Below are positions 48,314 to 64,000 of a DNA stretch of 64,000 nt, piece after piece (positions within the stretch are counted from its first letter, which is position 1; each line of letters opens with the position of its first letter). The notes below the pieces were generated by a model. That model saw only the letters and a list, made by a program, of their open reading frames with translations, did not search any database and was not told the DNA's origin. The stretch covers positions 186,001 through 250,000 of the forward strand of contig JAKPKV010000114.1 of NCBI GenBank assembly GCA_029553475.1, in the 5' to 3' direction. The position numbers were made by a program, and so were the translations under genes. Source of the stretch: Armatimonadota bacterium. GTDB lineage: Bacteria; Armatimonadota; Hebobacteria; CAIYQO01.

Positions 48314-48366
48314 TCGTATCTTCTATCGTACCAAGGATTGGATGATTATCCCTGAAACGCACGGCA

Positions 48367-49193: not shown

Positions 49194-49299
49194 GGCGGGG
49201 ATAGTCTCCTTCCTTTACGATCACGTAAGCGGCTGGTACATCATGCATCGAGTGGTAGGCAACCTTCATTTCTTCTCACCGTTAACAGTGGTCTCCGGC

Positions 49300-50109
49300 T
49301 CAACTGGAAATTGGACCACCTAGTAATGCATCGCGACACCGCCCGCATGAATGGTTTGCGCACCGTGTTATGTCGGGTGTCTCCCGAATCAGTCGTGTCG
49401 CCGTTTTGAGCACATCGTTTGCAGGCAAGATAATCCATTCACTACTGCCGACGCAGCTCTTTTTCGCGAATTGATCGAGAACGGGTGCGAATTGATCAAA
49501 TCCTTCTGAGCATCCACCACTTTCGACCATCATAGGCTGGCCATCCTGTGCGTTTGCCCAACGCCGAAATGGTGTGCGGCCAGCGAGTTTCTCCGCCAAA
49601 TGGAGTAACGTCATGCGCCGGTAGCTTACACCCGCTAAGAGAATTACCCCATTCATCTCTGAGAGTTTCTTAAGTGGAACGAATGCATCCACTGGCATTT
49701 GAGGCGCGATTAGGACTGCTGCAAGCGGGCCAACAGCACAAAAAGAGAGTAGGGGGTGGTTTCCTCGAAATCTAGAAGGCATGTTAACAATAGACTGTGG
49801 AATGGCACCCATATCTTTATCGATGACAGTACTTTCTGGCGTGTAAACTAGCGTACTCCTACTCTCAGACGTCCGATTATAGTCGTACCCATTTCGTTCA
49901 GGACGGAGGTGCTCTGGGGGCGGGATACGGAAATCATCGGCGAAGGTTGGTACCAATACTGTACATCTTTCGGCAAGAAATGCCTCGACAATAGTGGATG
50001 CTCCCTGGTCTACCCATCCGAATGAGCGCAGTGACGAGTGCAGACAAACCGGAAGACCGGAAAGCCCAAGGCTGCAGATCGAACTTCTAAGCTCTGCTTC
50101 AGTTAACAT
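49300..50109 (-). CDS. AAC(3)-family N-acetyltransferase (aminoglycoside acetyltransferase-like)
   Basis: 269 residues from the ATG at 50109, which follows CGGAGAG. Family signatures are LHSSLRSFGWVDQGASTIVE near residue 20, TVLVPTFADDF, and FRGNHPLLSFCAVGPLAA, which holds the conserved HP. The antibiotic-NAT fold uses acetyl-CoA and may modify the 3-amino group of aminoglycosides. Many environmental members have other or unknown substrates, so resistance is not proven. It starts 20 nt after the zinc-ribbon gene and is probably in one operon with it. Confidence 0.88.
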   Translation of the reverse strand: MLTEAELRSSICSLGLSGLPVCLHSSLRSFGWVDQGASTIVEAFLAERCTVLVPTFADDFRIPPPEHLRPERNGYDYNRTSESRSTLVYTPESTVIDKDMGAIPQSIVNMPSRFRGNHPLLSFCAVGPLAAVLIAPQMPVDAFVPLKKLSEMNGVILLAGVSYRRMTLLHLAEKLAGRTPFRRWANAQDGQPMMVESGGCSEGFDQFAPVLDQFAKKSCVGSSEWIILPANDVLKTATRLIRETPDITRCANHSCGRCRDALLGGPISS

Positions 50110-50129
50110 ATGCTCTCCGTGCTGATGCT

Positions 50130-50390
50130 TCAAAGCGTTCGCCAACGCTTCAGCTTTGGGATGCTTCGTGTCAGCATCCATGCGATGAACCCCGGCGTCC
50201 CCATCTCTTTTAGTTTGCCGACACAGAAGCGCTGCATGTCTGCAGCAGTCCGAATCTCGGGAGAAGTAAAGGCGCCATCCTGGTAGCAGTAGCTGCAGTA
50301 GTCGGTATTTTGGGTGCCGTCCTCGTTGGTTCCACCGTTCTCTGGATCCTTCTTCATCGGCATCCCGCAACTCTGACAGAACTTGTTCAC
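50130..50390 (-). CDS. Small zinc-ribbon domain protein
   Basis: 86 residues from a GTG with GGAGG 7 nt upstream. The N-terminus FCQSCGMPMKKDPENGGTN, then YCSYCYQDGAF, gives two Cys-x2-Cys pairs, the pattern of the putative zinc-ribbon family found in Firmicutes next to resistance or MarR-type genes. It is probably a small metal-binding accessory protein. The C-terminal FIAWMLTRSIPKLKRW resembles relatives. It is the first gene of the pair with the AAC(3)-type gene. Confidence 0.85.
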   Translation of the reverse strand: MNKFCQSCGMPMKKDPENGGTNEDGTQNTDYCSYCYQDGAFTSPEIRTAADMQRFCVGKLKEMGTPGFIAWMLTRSIPKLKRWRTL

Positions 50391-50593
50391 CTCGTTTCCT
50401 CCACATTGAGCTCGTTATTCTACGATAGCGACCATTTGCTCGGCAGGGGCCCACGATGGTATTGTCAACGACAGGGATCGTATTCCTCATTTCGGCAACG
50501 TCGCCTGCGGCTGACAATGAGAGCAAAGATGGGAACGATGTCTGCGCAATTGACACGTAAATGCTTCTCAGTGTTTTACAGCGCTTCCACCCC

Positions 50594-50599
50594 AGTATA
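50594..50599 (-). promoter_or_regulatory. Extended -10 element upstream of the zinc-ribbon/AAC(3) genes
   Basis: On the minus strand the sequence TGGTATACT is an extended -10. The -35 is weak. The roughly 200-nt leader to the start codon at 50390 holds no clear gene. Confidence 0.4.
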
Positions 50600-50769
50600 C
50601 CACTTTTCCGCTTTTTGAAAGATCGCTTCCGCATGGCGTTAACCTGGCTGGAGAATCTCGCAGAGCGGTAGAGCGAATCTGGCGATTTCGGGGGGAGGGG
50701 CGATGGCCGTAGTCTTAAGGTAAGGCCGTGCGATCTCTTTCGGAAAGCAGATTTGTGCTCACAGCGCAT

Positions 50770-51172
50770 TTACGGGATAGGTACCCGATACTCCCAACCT
50801 TCTCGCCAGCCAAAGTCCGCGCGAATCAGCTCCTCCAACGGGATGCCGTTGCGCAGATGATCAAACGCCCACCGGGTTGCCACATGTCCGATCACCAGCA
50901 CACGCGCGCCCTCCCAATAGGCGCAGAGATCAGGGAGCACACGTCCGACCCGCGTCACCGCTTGCCGCCAGCTCTCCCCATCGTGTGTGTGGAGGAGGCG
51001 GGCAATCACCGGCAGGATGTTCAGGGGTCCCTCCACCTTGGCAAAGCTCGCATCCGCCTGGCACCGCGCGGCGACTTCGCGCATGTTGGAGACATTGCTC
51101 ATGGGCAGTGTGGCTATCGGCAGCCCTGCCTGCCGGATATCACAGATCAACTCATCGCCGGGGTAGCCGGGT
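50770..51172 (-). pseudogene. Histidine phosphatase (phosphoglycerate mutase) family, N-terminus lost
   Basis: The open part reads GYPGDELICDIRQAGLP and ends with VLVIGHVATRWAFDHLRNG and FGWREGWEY, which is the C-terminal half of a histidine phosphatase domain with its second catalytic His (GHV). The essential N-terminal RHG motif is missing, because the frame runs directly into repeat copy B at 51,174. The 5' end appears to have been replaced by the repeat. Confidence 0.75.
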
Positions 51173-51173
51173 A

Positions 51174-51459
51174 GTGGACGAATTGGGGTAATCCGGAGCC
51201 TCCAGAGAATCAGAGAGAGAATTGGCCCGTTCGGGGCTTTTCAGCGGGAACCTCGTCCAGAGGTTTGGCGGTCGAAAGGTGTTCACACAGGCGGATTTGA
51301 GCGTAGAACGTGGCATGTTGGGCTATGTCCGCCCTAAGCCAAAAACCGCCCGGAGGCGGTTTGAGATGGGAGATATGCTGGAGGAAAGATGTCTGACATC
51401 GAAAATTCTCCAATGAAGTGGGGATGCGTGCCTACCAGAAATACTTCGAAACTGATTCT
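51174..51459 (+). repeat. Cassette-associated repeat, copy B
   Basis: It aligns throughout with copy A, including the box GTCCAGAGG (51255), the hairpin AACCGCC-CGGA-GGCGGTT and the end CTGATTCTATCG. The first box pair is degenerate (GTGGAC, ATCCGGAG). The similarity to copy A continues past the repeat into the duplicated glycosylase tail. Confidence 0.8.
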
Positions 51460-51501
51460 ATCGTACCAAGGATTGGATAATTATCCCTGAAACGCACGGC
51501 A

Positions 51502-51636
51502 CTATATTTCCTGGCAGTCCGGGCAGCAATAGATGCTGCCGCCCATGAATGTTTCCTTGCGGATGAGGCTCCCGCAGTCCGGGCACGGTCGGTCAAAGAT
51601 ATATAGGCTCATAGTGGTTCGGTAAATCTTGGACGA
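51502..51636 (-). pseudogene. Duplicated 3' tail of the endonuclease VIII-like gene
   Basis: About 44 codons encode RTTMSLYIFDRPCPDCGSLI followed by RKETFMGGSIYCCPDCQEI and a stop, the zinc-finger end of the gene at 48,367-49,193. The rest of the gene is absent. The fragment keeps the same distance to its repeat as the full copy does. Confidence 0.85.
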
Positions 51637-51647
51637 ACTTAAAACGG

Positions 51648-52328
51648 TCAATTCTTTATGTTTTCTTCTGCTTTTATCAGAAAATTATAAATAGGCGCGA
51701 GGATTTTATAACCTTCTGCTACTGTGGCAGATAGTTCGTCAGAATACAACAAGTCAAAGTCAGTGCTCTTCCTGAGAAAACAGATCGTTTTGCGATCAAG
51801 CCAATTTCGTAAATGTTCCGGCATATCGGGATACCGGCTTTTCTTATACAGATCACCTTCAAGCTGGAATATCTCTTGATTTTCATATGTCGAAAGCGCA
51901 GTATTGAAATCTTTATCACCAGATAATATCAGCCTGCGTATGCTTTCCATACTTGCAGTCCCCGCCGAATAATAACCACAGCCGTACAAAAAGCTATCAG
52001 GAGAAATAACGAAGAAAAACTCCGGCAATCCCGTGTTCTTTTCACGGACAAACATACACCACATGATGTCGCGAAACAGGGATTTATCCTTGGAAAAACG
52101 CGTGTCGCGCCATATGCGCGATACTGACCCGCCAACCTTTGGCGAGCAGATCAGCTTATCGTCAATATCCAACAGGACAGACGAAAGTTCATCGGCAAGC
52201 GATATCAATGGCGCGATCACAAATTCATGGTATTGCTCTTTATGCACCCCAAACCATGCTTTGTCATTTTGAAGACGGTTTTCAACGAGAAAATCGATGG
52301 TTTCCTGAGAAAATAAGGCGATCATCAT
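51648..52328 (-). CDS. DUF2461 family protein
   Basis: 226 residues. The conserved start FSQETIDFLVENRLQNDKAW, then RIWRDTRFSKDKSLFRDIMW and the YGCGYYSAG segment identify the DUF2461 (TIGR02453) family. The biochemical role is unknown. The ATG overlaps the TGA of the flavin-reductase gene (ATGA), so translation is coupled. It is the last intact gene of the MarR-led operon. The base composition is AT-richer than that of the host genes. Confidence 0.9.
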   Translation of the reverse strand: MMIALFSQETIDFLVENRLQNDKAWFGVHKEQYHEFVIAPLISLADELSSVLLDIDDKLICSPKVGGSVSRIWRDTRFSKDKSLFRDIMWCMFVREKNTGLPEFFFVISPDSFLYGCGYYSAGTASMESIRRLILSGDKDFNTALSTYENQEIFQLEGDLYKKSRYPDMPEHLRNWLDRKTICFLRKSTDFDLLYSDELSATVAEGYKILAPIYNFLIKAEENIKN

Positions 52329-52915
52329 TGCTCCTTCCTAAATAAATCCTTCCAATCTCCCGTCATGCCCTTCGGGACGGGGTTCAACGTATAATAGAGA
52401 CCTGCTCCTGAACTTTCCCAGATAACCGGCGCGGCTGATTTCATGCGTTCTTCCAAGCTTTTTGTTTCGTCCATGAGTTCTGTTGCTGCCAGAACATTGC
52501 GTATCTTGCAGATGAAAACCTCATTGCCTTGCAGCGGGATTGATTGATTGACCTCCAGCTCGTATACCCACGGGCTGTCCGTCAATATTGGAACATCCAG
52601 CACCGCGCCACGCTCAACCGCTATTGGTATATCCATCTTCCCCGGCGTATAGCCTGCGGTATGGCCCAGATAATCCGCGAGCGGGAGCAACTGTTCTGTC
52701 ACCAGATTCGCGGAAAAAACCTTGCTTGCGTGTATACGGTCAATCGTCAACTTTCGCTGGCCGATACTCGCCATGACGCCCAATTCTGAGTCCCAGCAAT
52801 AACTGAACCAGCAAAACAGTCCGAAATTTGGGGTGCCATCCTCTTTGTATGTCCCGTACATGAACAGTGCTTGGGGACAAAAAGAATTGATCTTGCCGAT
52901 TGATACTTTGTCCAT
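52325..52915 (-). CDS. Flavin reductase-like domain protein
   Basis: 196 residues. Segments SFCPQALFMYGTYKEDGTPN, then GVMASIGQRKLTIDRIHASK and FSANLVTEQLLPLADYLGHT, fit flavin reductase-like FMN-binding split-barrel proteins. It probably binds FMN and reduces flavin or acts as a flavin-dependent oxidoreductase. It lies downstream of the MarR regulator and a 44-residue protein, in an arrangement common in Firmicutes redox or stress operons. Confidence 0.85.
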   Translation of the reverse strand: MDKVSIGKINSFCPQALFMYGTYKEDGTPNFGLFCWFSYCWDSELGVMASIGQRKLTIDRIHASKVFSANLVTEQLLPLADYLGHTAGYTPGKMDIPIAVERGAVLDVPILTDSPWVYELEVNQSIPLQGNEVFICKIRNVLAATELMDETKSLEERMKSAAPVIWESSGAGLYYTLNPVPKGMTGDWKDLFRKEQ

Positions 52916-52983
52916 GGGTCATACTCCTCTCAGTTTCAAAAACTTGTTTTTCTCACGCTTACATTAAGCGTGGTTTACCTGGA

Positions 52984-53118
52984 TTAAGCTCCTTGCGAAA
53001 TCTCACGCACTTGATCGACTAATTCGTGTTCGCAATACTCCATGTCCACGGCATCATACAGGCTGTTGGCCGCATCCAACCAGACGGGATCATAATCTTG
53101 TCTTAACCTGTAATACAT
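52984..53118 (-). CDS. 44-residue protein between MarR and flavin-reductase genes
   Basis: The frame starts at the ATG at 53118, overlapping the end of the MarR gene by 16 bp. It encodes an acidic peptide with YRLRQDYDPVWLDAANSLYD and YCEHELVDQVREI. The overlap and acidic, helix-prone composition suggest a real, coupled product. No family is recognised. A 7-bp hairpin (CACGCTT/AAGCGTG, 52954-52972) lies between this gene and the next. Confidence 0.5.
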   Translation of the reverse strand: MYYRLRQDYDPVWLDAANSLYDAVDMEYCEHELVDQVREISQGA

Positions 53119-53600
53119 CGCTTTCCTTCCTCTTGCATGTCTCCTTTATCAAATGCTTCCTCTGCGGTGGTGACGTTGGTCAGGATCCGGCGCAGTGTGC
53201 CCTCGAATTGCCCGATCTCGGCTGAAGAAAGCCCCGCGTAACATACGGCGTTCATGGCTTCCGAAACGGCAGTGTAGCGGTCCTCCCATTCCCTGTGCTT
53301 CTCCGTGAGACGCACCAGGATGCTGCGGCGGTCGTTGGGTGACGGGACTCGCGTGATCCACCCATCCTGCTCCAACCGGTCCAGCATATTGGTCAGTGTC
53401 GACTTTTTGAGCGCGGTGCGAGCCGCTAAGGCCTGGATCGGGATACCGTCCCCCTGCCAGAGCGCAAAGAGGATGCGCCCCTGCGCCGGATTGAATTCTT
53501 CAACGCCGTGCTGCTTCAGCAACCGCGCGAAGACCCGCCCGCTGATGTGATGGATTTTCGCAATGAGAAAGCCGCCTTCATGCTCGATCTGCACTGGCAT
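53103..53600 (-). CDS. MarR-family transcriptional regulator
   Basis: 165 residues. The winged helix-turn-helix covers residues 50-110, with IPIQALAARTALKKSTLTNM, LDRLEQDGWITRVPSP, then NDRRSILVRLTEK, the canonical MarR DNA-binding region and wing. It probably responds to a small ligand or oxidant and represses its own operon. A palindrome, TATAGT-n-ACTATA, overlaps the promoter at 53,835-53,864. The start overlaps the end of the preceding small gene by 23 bp. Confidence 0.92.
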   Translation of the reverse strand: MPVQIEHEGGFLIAKIHHISGRVFARLLKQHGVEEFNPAQGRILFALWQGDGIPIQALAARTALKKSTLTNMLDRLEQDGWITRVPSPNDRRSILVRLTEKHREWEDRYTAVSEAMNAVCYAGLSSAEIGQFEGTLRRILTNVTTAEEAFDKGDMQEEGKRCITG

Positions 53601-53799
53601 CCACCGTGAATTGCATGGTCTCTTTCGTCATGTCGTGATAATATTCGGCGAAGACGGGCCGAATCCGCACGATGGTGTAATCCATGCCTTCGAGGCCGCG
53701 GTCGTAATACCCCGCCCCCCCGTCCTCCCATAGGCCTCGCTTGATCGTCATGTCAGCGCCCACTTCGGCATCCCCTGCCACCAGCAAACCTTGCCTCAT
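53578..53799 (-). CDS. Short pyridoxamine-phosphate-oxidase-like protein, probably N-terminally truncated
   Basis: 73 residues. LLVAGDAEVGADMTIKRGLW, then YTIVRIRPVFAEYYHD, resembles the second half of PPOX/general-stress FMN-binding proteins. The first half of the domain is missing, yet an ATG with AAAGGAGAATCCGC just upstream makes it a plausible expressed gene. It is the first frame after the operon promoter. It may be a deletion remnant kept as a leader gene, so the assignment is tentative. Confidence 0.5.
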   Translation of the reverse strand: MRQGLLVAGDAEVGADMTIKRGLWEDGGAGYYDRGLEGMDYTIVRIRPVFAEYYHDMTKETMQFTVDASADRA

Positions 53800-53834
53800 T
53801 GCGGATTCTCCTTTATGGAGTAATAATCTGATAT

Positions 53835-53864
53835 AGTATAGTTTTGTATCGTACTATATGTCAA
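53835..53864 (-). promoter_or_regulatory. Promoter/operator of the MarR operon
   Basis: On the minus strand, TTGACA (53859-53864) and TATACT (53835-53840) are 18 bp apart. The spacer and -10 form an inverted repeat, TATAGTACGATACAAAACTA, that is a likely MarR operator. Binding there would block RNA polymerase. Confidence 0.8.
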
Positions 53865-53989
53865 GTGCTTGCTTCTAATAGAGAGCGAGGGCCTAGCAAA
53901 ACTGGAATATTGTTAATAAGATGGAAGCTACAAAGCACGGCCCCCATGTATGTCAACCCCAAACCTGACCACAATTGGGAGGAACGTAG

Positions 53990-54290
53990 CCTGTGGACGG
54001 GTTTGAGGTAGTCCACAGGTTTTAGAGAAACAGAGAGAGAAAAGGCCGATTTTGGGCTTTTGTGGGGTATGAGCGCCGGCACCTCGTCCACAGGTTTTGC
54101 CATCCAAATGTGTTCAAACAGGCCGATTCGTGCGTAGAAAGTGGCGTGTTGAGCGATGGTCGCCCTGAGCCAAAAAACCGCCGAGAGGCGGTTTGCGGCG
54201 AAGGTATGGTGGAGGAACAGTATCTGAAATCGAAAGGTCATGGCGAGATATGGTTCGAGTGCCTACCAGGTGCATAAGCAAACTGATTCT
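53990..54290 (+). repeat. Cassette-associated repeat, copy C
   Basis: Box 1 is CCTGTGGAC (53990), box 2 GTCCACAGG (54011) and box 3 GTCCACAGG (54086). All three carry the same variant core. The hairpin AAACCGCC-GAGA-GGCGGTTT follows near 54,176. It ends about 65 bp from the 3' end of the GNAT pseudogene. Confidence 0.8.
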
Positions 54291-54355
54291 CAGTGCAGAG
54301 AATAATATCTGTTTACTGCGATTGTAGGAGAGTTGGCTCGCCGGATCGGTCTGCA

Positions 54356-54862
54356 TCATACCGTCTCCAGATCGATCCAGTACCGCGCATGCGCCTTACC
54401 GGTTTCGGAGTCCGTGCCGTCAGAGTCGCGCACGGTACCGTTCTTGACCATCGCCCGGGCAGAGGCGTAGTTGTCGAGATTGCAGGTGAGCAGCACGCGT
54501 GCCAGTCCCAGCGTGCGCGCCTTGTCAAGCGCCTGCGCTAACATGCGGGTCGCGCATCCCTGCCCGCGTCGGAGGGGCGCACGAAGTAGCCGATGTGGCC
54601 ACCGCAGTTTTCCAGCGCGGGGGTGAGGCGGTGGCGCAGTTTTAACACGCCAACCATCCGATCACCACGCACCGCCCAGTAGACATTCTGCGGTACCGCC
54701 CAGTCCGGCAGACCCTCGCCCCGTGCCTCACGTTTGAGCTGTTCTACGAACACAGCGAAATCGTCTCCCGGCAGGCGGTAATACCTCTCCGGATCTCCAT
54801 TCTCCACGAATTCGGCGATGAAGGCCAGCTATTCTTGCTTGAGGTAGGTGGTCGGGTCGACG
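54356..54862 (-). pseudogene. GNAT-family acetyltransferase, broken by a stop and a frameshift
   Basis: The reading HLVDPTTYLKQE-stop-LAFIAEFVENGD shows a TAG replacing a Tyr codon. Then ERYYRLPGDDFAVFVEQL, VYWAVRGDRMVGVLKLRHRL and GHIGYFVRPS follow. A frameshift near 54,570 leads into RGQGCATRMLAQALDKA and the C-terminal half. The acetyl-CoA loop (RGQGCA) falls right at the shift. It is fused in frame to the end of the upstream HAD gene. Confidence 0.85.
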
Positions 54863-55604
54863 AGATGTATATCATCATTCGCTGGCAGATTCACGTTCAG
54901 ATATGTCATGACTTGTTCAATCCGTTCGATCACCGGCCCGTCCCATTGGCGGGGATCGGCTTCCCGCATGACAATATCCCGTTCGTGTAGCGCGCAGAGC
55001 AGAACGGGCGTCATATCGGCCTGCCGGGCGCCGGTGAGTTCGCGACCGCTGCCATCGCCGACGTAGAGGCATCGCGCCGGTGGAACGCCTAATTGCGCAT
55101 AGATGAGTTGATACAATCGCGGGTCGGGCTTGCGCGCGCCGGCGGCACAGGAGAAGACCGTGGCGTGGAAGCGCCCGGCAAAGGCCGTCTGCTCCCACAC
55201 GTCGGGCACTTCCCACGAGCAGTCGCTGAGCAGCCCCAGCTTGTATCGTTGCGCCGCCAGCGCGCCAGCGCGGCTAGCGTGTCAAGGGTGCCGGAGCGTG
55301 GTGTCAGACTGCCCAGGCCAAAGCGCACGCGCTGTAACTGGACGGCGCGCTCGACCATCTCGTCCGTGGGCATAATGCCGAAGCGATCGCAGATGTAGCG
55401 GATTTGCGCCGCCGTGCTCGGTAGACTCCCCACGCGGCGCTGGTGGCGAAACTGCTCTTCCACCCAGCAGGCAATGAACGCCTCGCGGTCGATACCAAGC
55501 ATCTCCGCCGTCTCGCGCAGGCAGGTGTGATACACCTGATCGGTCACATTATCAACGAGCGTGCCGAAGAGGTCAAAAATCACTGCATCATACCGCCGGT
55601 TCAT
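54829..55604 (-). pseudogene. HAD-superfamily hydrolase, one frameshift, in-frame run into GNAT
   Basis: Starting at 55604 (AAAGGAACCCGT before the ATG), motif I is VIFDLFGTLVDN. The cap domain follows. Near 55,265 the frame shifts, after which YKLGLLSDCSWEVPDVWEQ is recovered. KPDPRLYQLI and the metal motif YVGDGSGRELTGARQADM are in the second frame. The expected C-terminus VIERIEQVMTYL has no stop and continues into GNAT-like sequence. It would be a small-molecule phosphatase if intact. Confidence 0.85.
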
Positions 55605-55619
55605 ACGGGTTCCTTTCAT

Positions 55620-55950
55620 AACGCATAACGACCACGTGCAATATTAACCACCTTCGCTAGCTAATACAGCAAATCCTGTCAAAGAACAGGAGGATTACAT
55701 TGATAAAAAGAGCAGGAGCCTATAGGCGTAATATACGGCTTCGAACACCCATCATCTCCCAGGCACATACCATCGTTCGAACAGCACATAGAGAACTGCC
55801 GACTAAGAGGCAAAAACCCCTCATTTTTCGACTCCCACCCGGAGAAGGAGAAAGAGGAGAGACCCGGCCCAACACGTTATTCATCCTCAATTTGACCTCA
55901 AAATATCCCTGTGATCCCATTCTCTCTCCGCCCCACAAACTGTCTCAGCA
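55620..55950. other. Gap between HAD gene and repeat D
   Basis: About 330 bp without a convincing gene or promoter for the HAD gene. The sequence is AT-richer than the host genes. Confidence 0.45.
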
Positions 55951-56245
55951 CCTCCGGACTGAAGATCCGGACGAGGTCGGGCTAGTCCGGAGGTTTCAGA
56001 GAATCAGAGAGAGAATCAGCGTGTTTTGGGTTGAAATGGGGTGGATAAGCGCAGCACCTCGTCCGGAGGTTTTGCCGCCCGAAGGTGTTCAGACAGGCCG
56101 ATTCGTGCGTAGAAATACGCGTGTCGGGCTCTGCACGCTCTAAGCTGAGAAACTGCCCAGAGGCGGTTTGCGGCGAAGGTATGGTGGTGCAAGAGTGCCT
56201 GGGATCGAATGCTCTCCGAGTGAACAGTGATGTCTCCTCATGCGA
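55951..56245 (+). repeat. Cassette-associated repeat, copy D
   Basis: Box 1 is CCTCCGGAC (55951), box 2 GTCCGGAGG (55985) and box 3 GTCCGGAGG (56061), all with the CGG core. The hairpin region is degenerate here (AAACTGCC-CAGA-GGCGGTTT). It ends about 30 bp from the 3' end of the intact GNAT gene. Confidence 0.8.
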
Positions 56246-56277
56246 AGGGGAGTCGAGATGTCTTCTAAAACGTATTA

Positions 56278-56769
56278 TCACACGAGTGATATGCTCATAG
56301 GGATGTAATCCATCTCTTGCCCATTACGGAATCGATGCTTATCCCGTTGTCCAGATTGAAATCCAGCTTTCTGATAAAAAGCTTCAGCAAACAGTGATGA
56401 TCGACACCACACTAGGGATAGTCCAACTCGGTTTGCTTCGGTGAGTAACCTGTTGAGGATGCAGGTTCCGATACCTTGCCTGACAAATGCTGGTAAGACA
56501 AACATACCTGTAATTTCGCCAGTATTACAATCCAATGTCCCGAAACCGACTGCACATGAGTCGATCTCGGCAACGAGAACGAATTGATATTCCTTTGTCA
56601 TATAACGCTCGGGACACAGGCCATCTCCCCAAGCCTTGACCTCACCATCCGTATAAACCATTCTCCCTAGATCAAAGATCGACGTGCGTTGAATATGGCA
56701 CAACGTTTCTCGATCTTGTTGAGTGGCTTTGCGAAGCTTTATGCGATTATTATCCGACATATAGATCAT
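56278..56769 (-). CDS. GNAT-family N-acetyltransferase behind an attenuator
   Basis: 163 residues from the ATG at 56769, which has AGGAG about 9 nt upstream. Motifs are IKLRKATQQDRETLCHIQRT, FVLVAEIDSCAVGFGTLD, then the acetyl-CoA-binding GMFVLPAFVRQGIGTCILNR with the Q/RxxGxG/A pattern. The C-terminal AEAFYQKAGFQSGQ is typical. The substrate is unknown. The gene has its own promoter, a leader peptide and a terminator hairpin directly upstream, so it is probably induced by a ribosome-targeting compound or amino acid shortage (inference). It is intact, unlike its neighbours. Confidence 0.9.
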   Translation of the reverse strand: MIYMSDNNRIKLRKATQQDRETLCHIQRTSIFDLGRMVYTDGEVKAWGDGLCPERYMTKEYQFVLVAEIDSCAVGFGTLDCNTGEITGMFVLPAFVRQGIGTCILNRLLTEANRVGLSLVWCRSSLFAEAFYQKAGFQSGQRDKHRFRNGQEMDYIPMSISLV

Positions 56770-56803
56770 AATGCCTTGCTTCTCCTGCTGGATTTTACCA
56801 CCT

Positions 56804-56912
56804 AAAAAACCCAAGGGTACTACCCTTGGGTCTGGACGGTGTATGCTGTTTAATAAGCCTAGTCTTACCTTACCCAGCAGCAAATCGTCCAGACCCCTTG
56901 TTAAGAAGGGGT
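56804..56912 (-). promoter_or_regulatory. Transcription attenuator with alternative hairpins
   Basis: Read on the minus strand: hairpin 1 is ACCCCTT/AAGGGGT (56893-56912). Then a 10-bp stem CGTCCAGACC/GGTCTGGACG joins 56829-56838 to 56886-56895. Then a perfect 9-bp terminator stem CCCAAGGGT/ACCCTTGGG (56810-56830) is followed by six T (56804-56809). Hairpin 1 and the long stem share three bases, as do the long stem and the terminator, so the folds compete. Confidence 0.75.
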
Positions 56913-56953
56913 TGGAATGCCAACAGACTAAACTGGGTAAGCAGAGTGCGCAT
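56870..56953 (-). CDS. Leader peptide of the GNAT attenuator (27 residues)
   Basis: The ATG at 56953 has GGAG 5 nt upstream. The peptide begins MRTLLTQFSLLAFQPLLN and ends GRFAAG. Its codons run through hairpin 1 and into the first arm of the long stem, so the position of a ribosome on it would decide which hairpin forms. The arrangement resembles leader peptides of antibiotic-inducible resistance genes. Confidence 0.7.
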   Translation of the reverse strand: MRTLLTQFSLLAFQPLLNKGSGRFAAG

Positions 56954-56971
56954 ATTATCTCCGATAACGGT

Positions 56972-57000
56972 AGTATAGGGAGTGATTGCTCTATCGTCAA
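56972..57000 (-). promoter_or_regulatory. Promoter of the attenuated GNAT gene
   Basis: On the minus strand, TTGACG (56995-57000) and TATACT (56972-56977) are 17 bp apart. Transcription would start near 56,965, only a few bases before the leader-peptide ribosome binding site. Confidence 0.8.
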
Positions 57001-57028
57001 TGAGAACTATGCACGGTTTCAGCTATAA

Positions 57029-57258
57029 CCTCCGGACAAGATAATGGGGTAGTCCGGAGGTTTCAGAGAAAGAGAGAGATTTAGCCGATTTTGGTCGATT
57101 TGGGGGCTTTGGGGCGGGAACCGAGTCCACAGGTCCTGCGGGCGAAATGTGTTCACCTAGGCCGATTTGAGCGTAGAAGGTGGCGTGTTGGGCCGAGGTC
57201 GCCCTCGGCCGAAAAACTGCCGAGAGGCGGTTTGCGGCGAAGATATGGTGGAGGCGGG
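57029..57258 (+). repeat. Cassette-associated repeat, copy E
   Basis: Box 1 is CCTCCGGAC (57029), box 2 GTCCGGAGG (57052) and box 3 GTCCACAGG (57125), so the third box carries the other variant. The hairpin AACTGCC-GAGA-GGCGGTT follows. It is the last copy and marks the right edge of the minus-strand gene array. The four-gene plus-strand operon begins beyond it. Confidence 0.8.
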
Positions 57259-57543
57259 GCGTACCCCTGAATATCCACAGCATTATCGTACCGCGCCGTC
57301 GCTAACAAATTGAGGCGAAATCGAGCAGGGTTCGTCACGGCACGTGTTTCCCTGCTCTCCTCAATCCGCTTCCTCGTCTTTCTTCGTATCTTTCGTAGGG
57401 GCGGGCCTTCCATGTGTTTCAAACTATGCGGCAAGTGCCATTTCTGCAATGCCCTTCGCCAGGCACCATCACTTTGTCCAGCGCAATTCTATGCTGCCAA
57501 GGTTTTGAGAAGGCCCGCATCAAGTATTGTAGCATGAAGGCCG

Positions 57544-57608
57544 ACAACCCCCAATCCCTGTCCTTCATACCTTTCGCCAGGAATATACATGCGCAAGAAG
57601 GGGGTTGT
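57544..57608 (+). promoter_or_regulatory. Leader hairpin covering a ribosome-binding-like G-run
   Basis: ACAACCCCC (57544-57552) pairs perfectly with GGGGGTTGT (57600-57608). The G-run lies 6-10 nt before an in-frame ATG at 57611 that could serve as an alternative, longer start of the kinase gene. No gene is visible in 57,259-57,543. Confidence 0.5.
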
Positions 57609-57703
57609 TAATGAATGGCGAAAGTTGCGGTAAACGCCTAGAGAAAGATAGTGCTCTTCGCACTCATTGGGTTTCTTTCGATACCTCCAAAGGGGAATTG
57701 CTA

Positions 57704-58339
57704 ATGAATACCCCAAAAAAGGGCATCTTTATCACTATTGAAGGTGGGCATGGCACTGGGAAAACTGCTTGCATTTCTCATCTTCGCGAACGTCTCGTTG
57801 AACGCGGGCAAACAGTTGTTTTGACCAATGACCAATCTGGAACAGCACTCGGCAAGCAAATACGTGCCATCAACCTTACAAACCATCCGGTTAATCCAGA
57901 TTTTCTGACTGAAGCGTTACTTATCGCAGCGGCGAGTAGACAGAATCTCGTCGAAGTAATCAGACCGTCACTAGCACGAGGAGATATTGTGATATGTGAA
58001 CGCTATGGTGACGCCTTTTATGCCTTCCAGGGCTTTGGGAGGCATATAGAGATGGCTTTTCTACAATCACTACGTAGTCGGATCGAAGAAGGTATGGCTC
58101 CTCCTGATGTAACATTGCTTCTTGACGCACCTGCTGCAGTAACACTCTCTCGTTTGTTACCCGCTTCACGGCACCGCATCGAGCGTGAATGCTTGCATTT
58201 CCATGAAGCAGTCCGTCAAGGTTACATTACTATAGCTTCTGACAACCAGGAGAGAATAACCGTTATAGATGCTCTTATGCCACTTCCCGATGTATTAGAA
58301 ACCGCTTGGCAACACCTGTGCCAGAAGCTCAAACTATAA
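57704..58339 (+). CDS. Thymidylate kinase-like nucleotide kinase
   Basis: 211 residues from the ATG at 57704; a longer start at 57611 would add 31 residues. The P-loop FITIEGGHGTGKT is at the N-terminus. ICERYGDAFYAFQGFGR is the substrate-binding DR-Y motif with Glu in place of Asp. PDVTLLLDAPAAVTLSR and the lid segment HFHEAVRQGYITIA follow. The family phosphorylates dTMP to dTDP with ATP. The changes EGGHG for EGxDG and ER for DR could indicate an altered nucleotide. It is the first gene of a tight AT-rich operon whose next start is 12 nt downstream. Confidence 0.88.
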   Translation: MNTPKKGIFITIEGGHGTGKTACISHLRERLVERGQTVVLTNDQSGTALGKQIRAINLTNHPVNPDFLTEALLIAAASRQNLVEVIRPSLARGDIVICERYGDAFYAFQGFGRHIEMAFLQSLRSRIEEGMAPPDVTLLLDAPAAVTLSRLLPASRHRIERECLHFHEAVRQGYITIASDNQERITVIDALMPLPDVLETAWQHLCQKLKL

Positions 58340-58351
58340 GGACGTTCATTC

Positions 58352-59257
58352 ATGTTAGGCTCTAATGTTCCGACAACAGGTGGCTTCAAGGTAGGCTTCA
58401 CGTTCGCAGAAGAGTGGGGTTGCGAATGCATCCAGCTTTATTTGACTAGTTCGCGGCGGTGGGCTGTTCCGCCACTTGATCCCATAATGCGCGAAGCTTT
58501 CCGAACAACTTGGCAAGAAAGCCACGTGAGCGCTATAATCTCCCATATCCCTTTCCTAGTCAACCTAGCATCGCCCGATAAGGAACTCTGCGAGAAATCG
58601 GTTGATCGTCTGGCAGTAGAACTCCAACGTGCCTTTGATCTAGGCATAACAACAGTAGTGTTACACCCTGGGAGTGCGAAAGGTATACCTTACTCATCAG
58701 CGTTATGTCGTGTTGCAGACAACATACGCATTGCTGTCACAAGGGCCAAGGTAGAATCCATTAACCTTCTGGTCGAAACGATGGCAGGGCAAGGAACATC
58801 ACTGGGCTCGAAGTTTGAACAACTCGCTGAGATCATAGCTTTGGTGAAGGACGACGTAAAGATTGGAGTATGCGTAGATACTGCACATATATATGAAGCT
58901 GGATATGACATTAAAGGGTATGACGGATATTCGCATATCTGGGCATTGTTTGATAAAGTCATCGGTATCCAACGGCTTGGGGCCATTCATGTGAATGATT
59001 CACTTGCGCCTTACAATTCTAGAATTGACCGACATGCGCCAATTGGTGAAGGACAAATTGGGTTACAGTTCTTCCATGCACTCGTCCGGGACGCACGCTT
59101 CGATAGAGTGCCTATCATTTCTGAAGTTCCCGATTTGTTAGCCGATGGTGAGAGAAACTTTCGATTACTAGTGAAGCTCCGTGATATGCCAAATGATTTG
59201 CCTGCAGATGATAATCGAATAATAACCGGGGTTATGCAATACACACTACCGTTCTAA
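58352..59257 (+). CDS. Endonuclease IV (Nfo)-like AP endonuclease family protein
   Basis: 301 residues. All nine zinc ligands of the family can be matched: His in SHIPFLVNLAS, His in LHPGSAKG, Glu in ETMAGQG, Asp and His in CVDTAHIYEAGYD, His in HVNDS, Asp and His in RIDRHAPIGEGQIG, and Glu in ISEVP. The spacing fits Nfo, so a metal-dependent TIM barrel that nicks DNA at abasic or damaged sites is likely. The N-terminus GSNVPTTGG matches the GAHVSxxGG of Nfo. Placement between a nucleotide kinase and a dNTPase is unusual. Confidence 0.9.
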   Translation: MLGSNVPTTGGFKVGFTFAEEWGCECIQLYLTSSRRWAVPPLDPIMREAFRTTWQESHVSAIISHIPFLVNLASPDKELCEKSVDRLAVELQRAFDLGITTVVLHPGSAKGIPYSSALCRVADNIRIAVTRAKVESINLLVETMAGQGTSLGSKFEQLAEIIALVKDDVKIGVCVDTAHIYEAGYDIKGYDGYSHIWALFDKVIGIQRLGAIHVNDSLAPYNSRIDRHAPIGEGQIGLQFFHALVRDARFDRVPIISEVPDLLADGERNFRLLVKLRDMPNDLPADDNRIITGVMQYTLPF

Positions 59258-59281
59258 CGTTGCGTCCAGAGGAAGGAGTTT

Positions 59282-60577
59282 ATGATGATCCGCGAAAAGA
59301 TTAAGGATTTTAGAGCGAAACACGCACTCACACAATATGTTGAAATTTCGGGAGAGGAAAGCACAAGGCGGGTATACCACCACGACCGTGCTGAAGTAAC
59401 ATATTGTCCGTATTTTAGACGGATGGCATTTCGTCGTTATCATTTTCCGAATCGTGGGCCAGAAAACAGAACGAGATTATTGCACAGCATTGAAGTATCT
59501 ACAATGGCTTCAGGTATGGCAAGGCGTCTGCTGGTTGATGTTGACCTTACTGAAGCAATCGCACTTGGACACGATATCGCCCAACCACCGTTAGGTTATC
59601 CAGTCGAGGGATTATTACGCGATTTTGTTGGCGATGGCCAGTATAATCATGCAAAACTTAGCTCGCGAATACTATTATGGAACTCCTTGAAAGACGAAGG
59701 TACAAAGCAATTTGAGGAATTAGAATCGCGAGGGTGTTATTCTATTGTAGAAATTAATGGTGGTGGTAAGAAGATCGCTACAATCACGGATGAAGCGATT
59801 GATGGGATAATGAAACATACACCACCATACGTTGAAGGACGCCCATCCATAGTTGCTGACCCTCCTCTCACGATTGAAGGACAACTTGTCAGAGTTGCTG
59901 ATACACTTTCCTACATTTCTCAGGAGATAGACGAGGCGCTTAGGATTAATAAGTCATTTGTTGAAAAACTGCAATCCTATGCAGGATGCGATACGTTTAC
60001 TTTACACACAGATTCCAAAGATATTGTAATGACACGTGAAGATTTACTAGCGCCGCCATTCCCTAGATCAACGAATTACGGTGAAAATTTTCTTAACTGG
60101 ATATTTAGCCCTGCATTCGGACCGCATGTAACTTCTATGATCCGCAGGTTTGAAGAAGTAGCAAAGGCACAATTGCTGACAAAACAATGTGACCGAAAGC
60201 CTTCGCACTATTGCGAACGTAGTAGATTACCTATCTTGCCATTTGATCCTACTTTACAATTTCTTATTGATTTTCTTTGGAAAGACTTTATTATTGATAC
60301 AGTGAATCAAGAGCCAGTGATCGTATCAGTTGTCGAGAACAATAGAAGTAAAATATGCAAGTTACTTGATCTATTGTATAAATATATTGACGATTACCGT
60401 GACAATGAGTTGGAGACCAGAAGACATGAATTACGAACCTATGAATTATCACTTAAAGAAGGTACAGAGTTATTCACTCGTGTTTTAATAGCAAATTATA
60501 TATCTTGCCTTACCGATGAAGGCGTTGATATTGCTCTTAGTCAGCTAGAAGAAATCAGTCGGAGGAGTGCTGTATGA
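59282..60577 (+). CDS. dGTPase-like HD-domain triphosphohydrolase
   Basis: 431 residues. The start follows GGAAGGAG. CPYFRRMAFRR corresponds to the conserved SxAFRR of dGTPases. RTRLLHSIEVS contributes His68, ALGHDIAQPPLGYPVE contributes His97-Asp98, and VADTLSYISQEID near residue 205 gives the last metal Asp. Such enzymes cut dNTPs to nucleoside and triphosphate, and bacterial members can deplete dNTPs against phage. The stop overlaps the radical SAM start (ATGA). The gene is distinctly AT-rich. Confidence 0.9.
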   Translation: MMIREKIKDFRAKHALTQYVEISGEESTRRVYHHDRAEVTYCPYFRRMAFRRYHFPNRGPENRTRLLHSIEVSTMASGMARRLLVDVDLTEAIALGHDIAQPPLGYPVEGLLRDFVGDGQYNHAKLSSRILLWNSLKDEGTKQFEELESRGCYSIVEINGGGKKIATITDEAIDGIMKHTPPYVEGRPSIVADPPLTIEGQLVRVADTLSYISQEIDEALRINKSFVEKLQSYAGCDTFTLHTDSKDIVMTREDLLAPPFPRSTNYGENFLNWIFSPAFGPHVTSMIRRFEEVAKAQLLTKQCDRKPSHYCERSRLPILPFDPTLQFLIDFLWKDFIIDTVNQEPVIVSVVENNRSKICKLLDLLYKYIDDYRDNELETRRHELRTYELSLKEGTELFTRVLIANYISCLTDEGVDIALSQLEEISRRSAV

Positions 60578-61680
60578 TTGCCGGAGTAGATATGCTGACA
60601 ATAGACAAACGTATTGCAGAGCACTTTAGTAATGTCAAACAAGTGTTTCTTTACATTACAGACCGCTGTAATCTTGCATGTGACTACTGCCTATATAAGT
60701 CACATACTACATTTCAGTTGCATACGCAAGAAATAGAAGCACAGCTAGCCAAGAAGCTCATACTGACTTTTCGCAATATGGGAGCCGTGAAATTATCTAT
60801 TATTGGTGGCGAGCCAACTCTATATGACATTGAGAATGGCAATCGGGGGTTATTTGACATTATTAGCTACTCTAAGAGAATTGGCTATAGTTATGTGCGC
60901 ATGGACACGAATGGCGTATTTCAACAATGCATATTAGATGACGCCAATCTTATGAAACTAGATGAACTGAGTTTTAGTATAGATTCACATGATGAAGCGT
61001 TAAATGACTCTTGCAGGGGACATTGTTCGCTTAGCCGTGCGCTTCCTAATTTATTGTATGCGATTAAACGAGGATATCATGTTGATGTTACGATGTGTAT
61101 TCATAGACTTAACTCAGGGAGAGATACAGATAGTCGCCTTATGGCCTTAAATACGATCAATGCCCTGTATGAATATGGCGTTAAAAGGATAAATATACAT
61201 CCTGTGCTTCGGGTTGGAATTCCAAGAGACACGTGGACAAGTCATGCTTGCCTTGAAGTGGAAGAATGGTTATTGATTAGAAAAGAACTTGAAGAGGCAT
61301 ATGAATGCGGACAATTTCCTTTAGAAGTAAGAATACCTACAAGGTTTATTACGGATCAGGAACACTCATCAAATCCTAAGTATTACGGATATTGCTCGGT
61401 CAGGATGGGAGAACGGATACTTATTCACCCAGATGGTATTATCCGTTGTTGTGCATTATTAATCGGGACACCATACGGAATTGGTAGATATGATGAGACT
61501 TCAATAGTATGGGATACTAGCAGGACAAACGAATTGTATGGTCGCGATTTAGACTTATGGACCCCTTGCCCAATACAAAGGTTAGATGATAATTCTATAG
61601 TACCACTTTGTATTTCTTTTAAGCCTGGGCAAGGTGAATACGTATGGAGTAAAGAACTTGATTGGGATAGTCGCTCGTAA
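60574..61680 (+). CDS. Radical SAM enzyme with SPASM-like C-terminal cysteines
   Basis: 368 residues. The cluster-binding motif is TDRCNLACDYC (Cys32, Cys36, Cys39) and the SAM-binding GGEP is at residues 78-81. The C-terminal third has more cysteines (YGYCSVRMGERILIHPDG, then IIRCCALLIG and CPIQRL... LCISF), like a SPASM/Twitch auxiliary-cluster domain. It lacks the CFHT motif of viperins and has no cobalamin domain. The overlap with the dGTPase-like gene means that it is coexpressed. The substrate is unknown; a nucleotide is the natural suggestion from context. Confidence 0.88.
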   Translation: MIAGVDMLTIDKRIAEHFSNVKQVFLYITDRCNLACDYCLYKSHTTFQLHTQEIEAQLAKKLILTFRNMGAVKLSIIGGEPTLYDIENGNRGLFDIISYSKRIGYSYVRMDTNGVFQQCILDDANLMKLDELSFSIDSHDEALNDSCRGHCSLSRALPNLLYAIKRGYHVDVTMCIHRLNSGRDTDSRLMALNTINALYEYGVKRINIHPVLRVGIPRDTWTSHACLEVEEWLLIRKELEEAYECGQFPLEVRIPTRFITDQEHSSNPKYYGYCSVRMGERILIHPDGIIRCCALLIGTPYGIGRYDETSIVWDTSRTNELYGRDLDLWTPCPIQRLDDNSIVPLCISFKPGQGEYVWSKELDWDSRS

Positions 61681-61697
61681 AGTATGGCCATTATGAT

Positions 61698-61880
61698 ATG
61701 CGACGAGTTGCAATGCTTACTGAGCAGGAGTTCAGATACACATATTATTACAAGAATTATCGCATGGACACTTTACCCGTCAAGGAGTGGTTATGGTTTG
61801 ATTTGTGCCAACTGGCTTGCAGATACCTGCGCTCACTTCTACAACGTCTCCCGATTGCGGTTATCCTGCATACGAAGTAA
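61698..61880 (+). CDS. Possible small protein after the operon
   Basis: 60 residues, with TEQEFRYTYYYKNYRMDTLP and WLWFDLCQLACRYLRSLL. It begins 17 nt after the radical SAM stop but has no good ribosome binding site. It could be an expressed small protein or a 5' gene remnant. Alternative frames across 61,684-61,947 look less protein-like. Confidence 0.3.
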   Translation: MRRVAMLTEQEFRYTYYYKNYRMDTLPVKEWLWFDLCQLACRYLRSLLQRLPIAVILHTK

Positions 61881-61965
61881 ACGAAATAACGTTATGGTTA
61901 GTAATGGTTGCTTTGTCAACCGAGAAACTCCATACGCATTCAAGTAGGGAGCTGCCGACATAGTT

Positions 61966-61999: not shown

Positions 62000-62368
62000 G
62001 AAACCTAAGCCTTCCTTTTCGCAACGGCCATCTGGCATTTTTTTATATGCGAGACAAGCCCGCCCGCCTTGAAATCTTCCAACCGGCCCACTTCTCCCCA
62101 TAACCGCATGACTTTAGAGTTATACGACACCATAACGCGTAAAGACGGACAACCGTCGTATCGAACCCATACCGCCTTTCTAAAAGCCAATAAAAGAGAC
62201 CCCCAACAAAAATTTACACGCCATCGGATGAATAGCTAGAGCTGGACACGACTTACCTTAACTGCAAAAGGGATTCATCTAGGCGTCGGAGAAACAATAG
62301 CTATATCAGTTTCGGTATTTTTGCACAGTGCATTCTGTAGCATTTCTCCTAATTGGGGGAGCCGGCCC

Positions 62369-64000
62369 ATGCGTATCTGTCGCCTTGACATTAACGGCTT
62401 TCGCGGAATCAAAGAAGGCTCGGTCACTTTCCCAGAGCACGCGCTTCTTCTTGGCCCCAATAATTGTGGAAAAACCACGGTGGCTGAGGCGTTGGCCTTA
62501 CTGTTTGGTCGGGAACGCGCTGTGACCCGCCAGTTATCGGATTGGGATTTCTTCGGCGGTACTCCCAAGGCTGATACGCGCTTCACGCTTATTGGGACAG
62601 TCACAGACTTCGGCGATGGAACGGTAACAGACCCAGGACAATTCCCCGATTGGTTTTGTGGTGAACGAGGCGCAACGCCTGTTTGGTTTCGTGAAGACAC
62701 GGGTGAAGTTCTATACGCTCCTGATCCGCCTCTCGGAACAAAACTGGCGGCGCAGATTGCTTTGACAGGCCGTTATGATGAGGACGCCTGTGAGTTTGAG
62801 ACGGTCCGATATTATTACCAGGGGCCTTGTGACCCTTTTACCGATCCCCACTTCGCTGTTCCACTCTTACGGCAACGCGAGATGGGAGTATTCGTCCTTC
62901 CATGTAACCGAGAATGGCAGGATGCCCTCTCTTTCAATTCATCAACGTTTCTTAAAGTACTACGGGAGTATGGCGCTGTTCCAGGGAAAAGCATTGACGA
63001 CTTAAAACAGGAGTTACGCTCTCCCGATGCCAAAATTGAAGACGCTACTCCGTTTACCGATATCATTCAGCTTGCAGAGCAAGAATTGCGTGGATTCTCA
63101 TTTCTTGCCCAAACCGATAAACTTGCCTACCGGCCAACGCAGTTAGATTCCCTCGCGGTTATGCGCAGCTTGGTCCCACACATTATGGGCGATGTGATTG
63201 AGTATCTGCCTGTGGCCCGGCAGGGGTCTGGGTTGATTTCACTGCAGACCTTCCTACTCCTCCTTGCCTTTGCTGACTATAATCGGAGGAAAGGCCGCAA
63301 TTTCGTCTTTATCGCTGAAGAGCCTGAGTTGCATCTCCATCCATCACTTCATCGTCGGCTCGCAACGCGCATCCGTGGCCTGAGCACGCAGTCAATCATT
63401 ACGACCCATTCGCCCAATATCGCAGCCGGGTATCAGCCACATTAAGTAATCTACCTGCAAAACCGCGAGGGAACGCTTATTTCTACGGTGCTGAAGCGGG
63501 AAGCTCCACAGACCATTCACCCTAATTCAATCCAAAAACTCTATACGACGAAGCGCCAGGCGCTCTACGATACGCTGATGAGCACATCAGTTGTATTGCC
63601 GGAAGGCGAATATGACCATGATTGGCTCTCTTTGCTACTACGCATTGCTGAAGCGGCTGCTGATCGGAACAATGCCGAGCAATTGAAGCCGTTTACTATT
63701 GTGCCAACGCAAAGTGCCATCATTGAAACATATGTCGAGTTGGTACGTCTACGACCCGATATAATCCCGCTGGTTGATGGCGATTCGCCTGGAAAAGGTT
63801 ACCTTACAACTCTGCAGAACCAGGCGAACCCTCCGCGTGCCATCATTACGTATGGCGATGACGCGGCTATCGAATGCCTTGCGGCATGGGTACTTGAACC
63901 CGCTCTAGCAAGCCCTGGCTCATGTCTCGCAAAGCTTCTCCCTGATCCTTCCACCCATACATTAAAAGGACTTCAGGATGCTTTAATTGGGATCAAGAAA
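62369..64000 (+). pseudogene. OLD-family ATPase-TOPRIM nuclease with an in-frame stop, continuing past the window
   Basis: From the ATG at 62369 the protein begins MRICRLDINGFRGIKEGSVT with Walker A LLGPNNCGKTT. The ABC-type end of the ATPase is FIAEEPELHLHPSLHRRLAT, then STQSIITTHSP. A TAA at 63443-63445 follows GYQPH. The same frame then stays open to the end and encodes a TOPRIM domain: VVLPEGEYDHDWLSLL, PLVDGDSPGKGYL and YGDDAAIECLAAW. A CAA-to-TAA change is the simplest cause. OLD proteins are DNA nucleases, several in anti-phage systems such as Gabija. Any partner gene would lie outside the window. Confidence 0.85.

What the first reader, a model, noticed from the sequence alone, without database searches (positions are those of the whole stretch)
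57544..61680. Four-gene operon: nucleotide kinase, Nfo-like nuclease, dGTPase-like enzyme and radical SAM enzyme
Seen directly: four plus-strand genes with a 12-bp gap, a 24-bp gap and an ATGA overlap, AT-rich against a GC-rich host, next to an OLD-family defence-type nuclease. Known: dGTPases deplete dNTPs against phage; prokaryotic viperins are radical SAM enzymes that often sit with nucleotide kinases and make chain-terminating nucleotides; oxetanocin synthesis pairs an HD phosphohydrolase (OxsA) with a radical SAM enzyme (OxsB). Inference: the set makes or processes a modified deoxynucleotide. The kinase would activate it, the radical SAM enzyme would alter the sugar or base, the HD enzyme would remove competing dNTPs or release the nucleoside, and the Nfo-like enzyme would act on DNA carrying it or protect the host. 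I do not know this combination as a named system.
Basis: partly seen in the sequence, partly recalled or inferred. Interest (0 to 1): 0.87.

Follow-up and report, generated by a model that had tools for sequence, protein, structure and literature searches.

The report
Nucleotide-enzyme operon on a mobile defence island
Four tightly packed bacterial genes (a nucleotide kinase, a DNA-repair nuclease, an altered dNTP-cutting enzyme and a radical-chemistry enzyme) sit at the end of a mobile anti-virus island and may together make or handle an unusual DNA building block, but this set was found in only one genome, so its function is a hypothesis.

Summary
In detail: four + strand genes with 12-bp and 24-bp gaps and an ATGA overlap, AT-rich, beside Gabija-like genes. 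They encode a dTMP-kinase-family kinase, an endonuclease IV, a dGTPase-like HD protein and a radical SAM (rSAM) enzyme. The genome has separate standard copies of the first three, so this is an accessory set. It is the first cargo of a putative 29.7-kb island ending at the tmRNA gene, with a serine recombinase and SspD. New: the kinase keeps its catalytic residues, but every base- or 3'-OH-contacting position I could map is changed. The HD protein keeps its metal ligands but lost the His of the catalytic HE dyad. Endonuclease IV keeps all nine metal ligands. The rSAM enzyme belongs to a rare family (four relatives found, one broken) with four extra conserved cysteines; it fails tests for viperin and OxsB. 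No relative has the other three genes nearby. Best reading (0.4): a mobile, probably anti-phage cassette built around a modified nucleotide. Rivals: a nucleoside natural-product pathway, dNTP-pool control, chance assembly. The combination was not found in the papers searched, and its conservation was not shown.

The parts
57243..57259 (.). Putative left attachment site: 17-bp direct repeat ATATGGTGGAGGCGGGG, also at C186:272922-272938 at the 3' end of tmRNA
57704..58339 (+). Gene 1: dTMP-kinase-family nucleotide kinase (frame open from TTG 57605 and ATG 57611) with substituted base pocket
58352..59257 (+). Gene 2: endonuclease IV (Nfo) homologue, all nine metal ligands kept
59282..60577 (+). 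Gene 3: dGTPase-like HD protein, metal ligands kept, catalytic His of the HE dyad replaced by Tyr
60574..61680 (+). Gene 4: radical SAM enzyme with CxxxCxxC and four further conserved cysteines (C274, C293, C332, C346)
62321..63445 (+). Neighbour: GajA-like ATPase ORF, interrupted by an in-frame TAA at 63443-63445; the same frame continues from 63488
63488..64000 (+). Neighbour: remainder of the GajA-like frame, running out of the window; a GajB-like helicase follows on the contig

Best explanation
A horizontally acquired four-enzyme cassette, carried at one end of a mobile defence island, that makes and handles a non-standard nucleotide. Shown: operon layout; accessory status; position next to Gabija-like and Ssp-type genes in a putative island ending at tmRNA; a kinase with intact phosphate-transfer machinery but substituted positions where standard dTMP kinases read the thymine and the 3'-OH; an endonuclease IV with a complete metal site; an HD protein with a metal site but without the catalytic His; an rSAM enzyme of a distinct rare family. 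Inferred: the rSAM enzyme alters a nucleotide (or nucleoside), the altered kinase phosphorylates that product, phage polymerase incorporates it or is stalled by it, the endonuclease IV cuts or trims DNA carrying it (protecting the host or destroying phage DNA), and the HD protein binds or hydrolyses the nucleotide to control its level.
For: Operon and families. The host has its own kinase (C119:55182), Nfo (C122:50174) and dGTPase (C186:89211), at 35-40% identity to the operon copies. Kinase against 15 relatives: TREPGG, nearly all invariant in 15/15, reads TNDQSG; Arg74-equivalent (R in 15/15) is Ser; Asp9-equivalent (D/E in 15/15) is His; Phe70-equivalent (aromatic in 14/15) is Ile; Asn100-position (T/S in 15/15) is Phe; P-loop Lys, DR-motif Arg and lid Arg/Glu are kept (residue roles from PMC3619541). 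HD protein: positions 101 and 106 are His in 14/14 relatives, Gln and Tyr here; metal ligands H68, H97, D98, D207 kept; H126/E129 is the catalytic dyad in dGTPases (PMC12265719). Island: 17-bp direct repeats, tmRNA, serine recombinase, Prim-Pol, GajA/GajB-like, HerA-like, SspD. Weak hint on substrate: distant rSAM relatives lie near PfkB and Nudix genes (N. farcinica), a nucleotidyltransferase (actinomycetes), CYTH (Clostridia) or a TIR/Nudix pair.
Against: No second copy of the four-gene set was found. The closest rSAM relatives (41-43%) have other neighbours. Top structural matches of the rSAM model are split between viperin, MoaA and peptide-modifying enzymes, and the model's C-terminal part is unreliable. 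One relative lies in a cluster with PqqD, which suggests peptide chemistry. The altered pockets could be drift in genes on their way to loss: the GajA neighbour is interrupted. No phage assay or enzymology exists.
Confidence: 0.4

Rival explanations
1. Part of a small nucleoside or sugar-nucleotide natural-product pathway (a secreted antimetabolite with self-protection by the endonuclease IV), carried by the island but not a phage-defence system.
For: Close rSAM relatives in rumen Alphaproteobacteria lie in a biosynthetic-looking cluster (nitroreductase, second rSAM, HD hydrolase, APH kinase, a 502-aa protein without a family match) and one in Clostridia lies with an ABC exporter and PqqD. Oxetanocin pairs an HD phosphohydrolase with an rSAM enzyme, and the albucidin locus lists a thymidylate kinase among nearby genes (PMC7074753).
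Against: No transporter, tailoring enzyme or regulator in the operon; flanked by defence genes; no cobalamin domain seen as in OxsB.
Confidence: 0.22
2. dNTP-pool control: the HD protein, sensing or cutting dNTPs, and the kinase, setting dTTP or a related pool, starve phage or sense its nucleotide metabolism, as in Clover or dGTPase defence; the rSAM enzyme is auxiliary.
For: PADLOC's defence dGTPase model matches over residues 21-415 (E 1.7e-21). In Clover, dTTP activates a dGTPase (PMC12265719).
Against: The His of the HE dyad is Tyr, the neighbouring conserved His is Gln, and the kinase's thymine contacts are changed. There is no CloB-like nucleotidyltransferase in the operon.
Confidence: 0.15
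3. Chance assembly: four unrelated accessory genes gathered on a recombining island without a shared function.
For: No second copy of the set. GC differs between genes 1-2 (47%) and 3-4 (39-41%). The region holds repeats and an interrupted neighbour.
Against: Tight spacing with a 4-bp overlap; three second copies of nucleotide or DNA enzymes in one operon, two of them with altered substrate or catalytic sites.
Confidence: 0.15
4. The rSAM enzyme modifies a small peptide; the other genes are incidental.
For: Four extra conserved cysteines give a SPASM/twitch-like auxiliary site; one relative lies in a cluster with PqqD; SkfB, PqqE and other peptide-modifying enzymes are among the structural matches.
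Against: No precursor peptide gene was found: the small ORFs behind the operon (61684-61947, 61698-61880) match nothing in the plasmid collection, and no PqqD-like gene is present in the operon.
Confidence: 0.08

Closest known systems
Prokaryotic viperins (pVip), often next to nucleotide kinases
   Same: Radical SAM core; matches the PADLOC pVip models (E 2.9e-15) and viperin structures; a kinase in the same operon; defence setting.
   Different: Far below the NCBIfam viperin cut-off (53 against 180 bits); longer, with a C-terminal conserved four-cysteine set; comes with Nfo and an HD protein.
Anti-phage dGTPases and Clover (CloA/CloB)
   Same: HD protein with dGTPase-like metal site; near full-length match to the PADLOC dGTPase model.
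   Different: The catalytic His of the HE dyad is Tyr; clear identity to dGTPases (about 26-41%) only over the N-terminal half; no nucleotidyltransferase partner.
Oxetanocin (OxsA/OxsB) and albucidin gene sets
   Same: HD-domain protein plus radical SAM enzyme acting on nucleotides; the albucidin locus lists a thymidylate kinase nearby (PMC7074753).
   Different: OxsB is a cobalamin-dependent rSAM enzyme; the enzyme here shows no cobalamin domain. From general knowledge, OxsA is a different, smaller HD type.
Bacterial dTMP kinase (Tmk)
   Same: Passes the TIGR00041 cut-off; P-loop, DR-motif Arg and lid residues kept.
   Different: Residues that contact thymine and the 3'-OH are substituted at positions nearly invariant in 15 relatives.
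Endonuclease IV (Nfo)
   Same: Passes TIGR00587; nine metal ligands kept; Arg at the R37 position kept.
   Different: Tyr72-equivalent is Phe; located in an operon with nucleotide enzymes; second copy in the genome.

Membership tests
Prokaryotic viperin (pVip) | Score above the curated NCBIfam cut-off (NF038283, 180 bits) | tested here: not met
   53.2 bits
Prokaryotic viperin (pVip) | Radical SAM CxxxCxxC motif | tested here: met
   C32, C36, C39
Prokaryotic viperin (pVip) | Makes a 3',4'-didehydro ribonucleotide | not testable with these tools
   needs enzymology
dGTPase / dNTPase | HD metal ligands (His, His-Asp, Asp) | tested here: met
   H68, H97, D98, D207; 14/14 relatives agree
dGTPase / dNTPase | HE catalytic dyad (H126/E129) | tested here: not met
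   Tyr106 and Glu109; His in 14/14 relatives
dTMP kinase | Score above TIGR00041 cut-off | tested here: met
   123.7 against 83.25
dTMP kinase | Residues that contact thymine and the ribose hydroxyl (Asp9, Phe70, Arg74, Asn100 of the M. tuberculosis enzyme) | tested here: not met
   His, Ile, Ser, Phe; mapped by motif
Endonuclease IV | Curated cut-off and nine metal ligands | tested here: met
Oxetanocin-type pathway (OxsA/OxsB) | Cobalamin-binding domain on the radical SAM enzyme | tested here: not met
   Pfam finds only Radical_SAM and Fer4_12
Clover | CloB nucleotidyltransferase next to the HD protein | tested here: not met
   not among the operon's genes
Anti-phage defence system | Protects against phage | not testable with these tools
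   location in a defence island only:

The most novel reading that the evidence does not exclude
A new type of nucleotide-modifying defence cassette: a radical SAM enzyme of an uncharacterised family makes a non-standard deoxynucleotide, a repurposed dTMP kinase activates it, an HD protein without the HE dyad senses or clears it, and an endonuclease IV acts on DNA that contains it.
Probability: 0.28. Interest if true: 0.85.

Novelty: new variant of a known kind. Interest (0 to 1): 0.5.

Why it matters
If the cassette makes a modified nucleotide, it would add a DNA-directed counterpart to viperins and a further radical SAM chemistry on nucleotides, with its own activating kinase and a matching DNA nuclease. 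The kinase and HD protein are also concrete cases of household enzymes whose substrate or catalytic residues were changed on a mobile island, which can be tested enzyme by enzyme.

Tried and rejected
No match for the rSAM protein in the phage collection, and no relative in viral contigs with the single protein or the close-family profile. A mixed profile gave only generic, distant rSAM proteins. Kinase, Nfo and HD proteins: no relative in viral contigs from their own peptide patterns, and the HD motif HDIAQPPLGYP gave none. The operon as DNA has no match in plasmids. Frameshift or pseudogene in the operon: none, all four frames are open. Precursor peptide behind the operon: no match. RNA families in 46-64 kb: none. 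Empty site in the sister genome: its contig ends before tmRNA. Literature: no paper in the library holds three or more of the terms radical SAM, thymidylate kinase, endonuclease IV and dGTPase. A structure job for the HD protein was not run, since no suitable alignment was on hand. (PAPS reductases in the genome) added nothing to the question.

Full report
WHAT IS THERE. The window is G000:C186:186001-250000 of a 5.27-Mb, 194-contig genome. Four + strand genes lie at 57605/57704-58339, 58352-59257, 59282-60577 and 60574-61680. Curated models identify gene 1 as dTMP-kinase family and gene 2 as endonuclease IV, both above cut-off. Gene 3 matches dGTPases below cut-off (best NF002327, E 9.6e-30; PADLOC dGTPase over residues 21-415, E 1.7e-21). 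Gene 4 is a radical SAM protein that matches MoaA, viperin and others only below cut-off. GC is 47, 47, 41 and 39% against 65-70% in the host part of the window.

ACCESSORY COPIES. The same genome has another dTMP kinase (C119:55182), another endonuclease IV (C122:50174) and another dGTPase (C186:89211), 35-40% identical to the operon's proteins over the matched parts. The operon is therefore not a displaced household operon.

SETTING. The GajA-like frame next door carries an in-frame TAA at 63443-63445 and is followed beyond the window by a GajB-like helicase; then, on the other strand, a HerA-like ATPase, a 1377-aa protein with a weak BrxC/D match, SspD (PADLOC E 1.1e-103), DUF4007, DUF3987 and a Prim-Pol; and, on the + strand, a large serine recombinase whose gene runs into the 3' end of tmRNA. 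A 17-bp direct repeat, ATATGGTGGAGGCGGGG, lies at window 57243-57259 and at C186:272922, the tmRNA 3' end. GC returns to host values just beyond. I read this as a 29.7-kb island inserted at tmRNA with the operon as its first cargo. Two cautions: about 12 of the 17 bases also occur in a local repeat family, and serine recombinases were not known to target tRNA or tmRNA genes when Islander was written (PMC4383910).

KINASE. Against 15 dTMP kinases of the phylum, catalytic residues are kept (P-loop Lys53; DR-motif Arg133; lid Arg191 and Glu193; Gln142). Substituted positions: TREPGG to TNDQSG (R, E, P and the first G each 15/15); Asp/Glu to His49; aromatic to Ile107; Arg to Ser111; Ser to Ala137; Thr/Ser to Phe138; Tyr to Phe141 (numbering from TTG 57605). 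In the M. tuberculosis enzyme Phe70 stacks on thymine, Arg74 and Asn100 bond to it, and Asp9 bonds to the ribose hydroxyl (PMC3619541). My mapping of those residues is by motif, not from a structure. The simplest reading is a kinase that no longer reads dTMP in the normal way.

HD PROTEIN. Metal ligands His68, His97, Asp98 and Asp207, and Glu109, are kept (14/14). The stretch that reads GHxPFGHxGE in relatives reads AQPPLGYPVE here: His to Gln101 and His to Tyr106. The second is the His of the HE dyad that dNTP hydrolysis requires in this family (PMC12265719). Positions 126, 208, 214, 215 and 218 are also changed against near-invariant residues. So the family resemblance is to dGTPases, but ordinary dNTPase activity is not expected.

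ENDONUCLEASE IV. All nine metal ligands are kept: H65, H105, E142, D176, H179, H213, D226, H228, E258. The Tyr72 equivalent is Phe68. It should be an active phosphodiesterase on damaged or abasic DNA (established for the family); its role here is inferred.

RADICAL SAM ENZYME. A scan of contigs of 84,980 species gave three full-length relatives at 41-43%: L065 (uncultured Clostridium), L066 and L067 (rumen Alphaproteobacteria, near-identical to each other). A further, broken one is in Clostridia (G427, three in-frame TAA). The other class and order searches gave none. The family has C274, C293, C332 and C346, NPKYYGYC and FKPxQxExVW in common. The AlphaFold model is moderate (pLDDT 65; C-terminal part below 50) and matches viperin, SkfB, MoaA and PqqE at similar strength, so it does not decide the substrate. 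No relative has a dTMP kinase, endonuclease IV or dGTPase nearby. Neighbours instead: nitroreductase, second rSAM, HD hydrolase, APH kinase (L067); CYTH, PqqD, ABC exporter (G427). More distant relatives (24-28%) lie by a CAP12-type TIR protein and Nudix (G031), a nucleotidyltransferase, FAD monooxygenase and second rSAM (Nocardia, Kitasatospora plasmids), or an ORF with a P-loop-like start, PfkB and Nudix-like genes (N. farcinica). Nucleotide and phosphoryl-transfer enzymes recur, which is suggestive only.

HOW IT MAY WORK. Steps shown: an accessory operon on a putative defence island; altered kinase and HD sites; intact endonuclease IV site; a distinct rSAM family. Steps inferred: the rSAM product is a nucleotide; the kinase activates it; the HD protein controls it; the endonuclease IV acts on DNA containing it; phage is the target. 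I put 0.4 on this chain in outline and 0.28 on the full novel version.

NOVELTY. I know of no named system with this combination and found no paper that joins these families. Because no second copy was found, I call it a new variant of a known kind (nucleotide-based defence or nucleoside-modifying gene sets), not a new category.

Noticed in passing
48020-57254: Five copies of a ~240-bp repeat (74-80% identical, same orientation; starts about 48020, 51174, 53991, 55969, 57045), several ending in TATGGTGGAGG like the tmRNA 3' end. Between them lie single accessory genes (aminoglycoside acetyltransferase-like, flavin reductase/DUF2461, MarR, GNAT). Possibly stacked earlier insertions or a cassette array.
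   Followed up: partly
57243-57259 and L021:11922-12317: Putative island boundaries at tmRNA with a large serine recombinase, although serine recombinases were not known to target tRNA or tmRNA genes (PMC4383910).
   Followed up: partly
63443-63445: In-frame TAA inside a GajA-like gene; the frame continues from 63488. Decayed gene or assembly error.
   Followed up: no
L017:9625-18919 and L021:1-4217: SspD-type gene set with HerA-like ATPase, DUF4007 and a 1377-aa protein with a weak BrxC/D match; the make-up looks unusual for a phosphorothioation system.
   Followed up: no
L002:588-2472: CAP12/Pycsar-type TIR protein immediately before a radical SAM protein, with a Nudix-like gene behind, in another genome of the phylum.
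   Followed up: no
L065:10001-11530: Radical SAM protein of the same family extended at its C-terminus by a receiver-like stretch (no Pfam match for it), behind a LysR regulator.
   Followed up: no
L019:5211-9335: N. farcinica plasmid locus with an ORF that starts like a P-loop kinase (no Pfam match), a radical SAM gene, a cupin-like, a PfkB and a Nudix-like gene; a locus of the same length is in the viral collection (L023).
   Followed up: partly
L071:8740-15565: Clostridial cluster with CYTH, PqqD, ABC exporter and a pyruvate-kinase-barrel protein around a radical SAM gene broken by three TAA codons.
   Followed up: no
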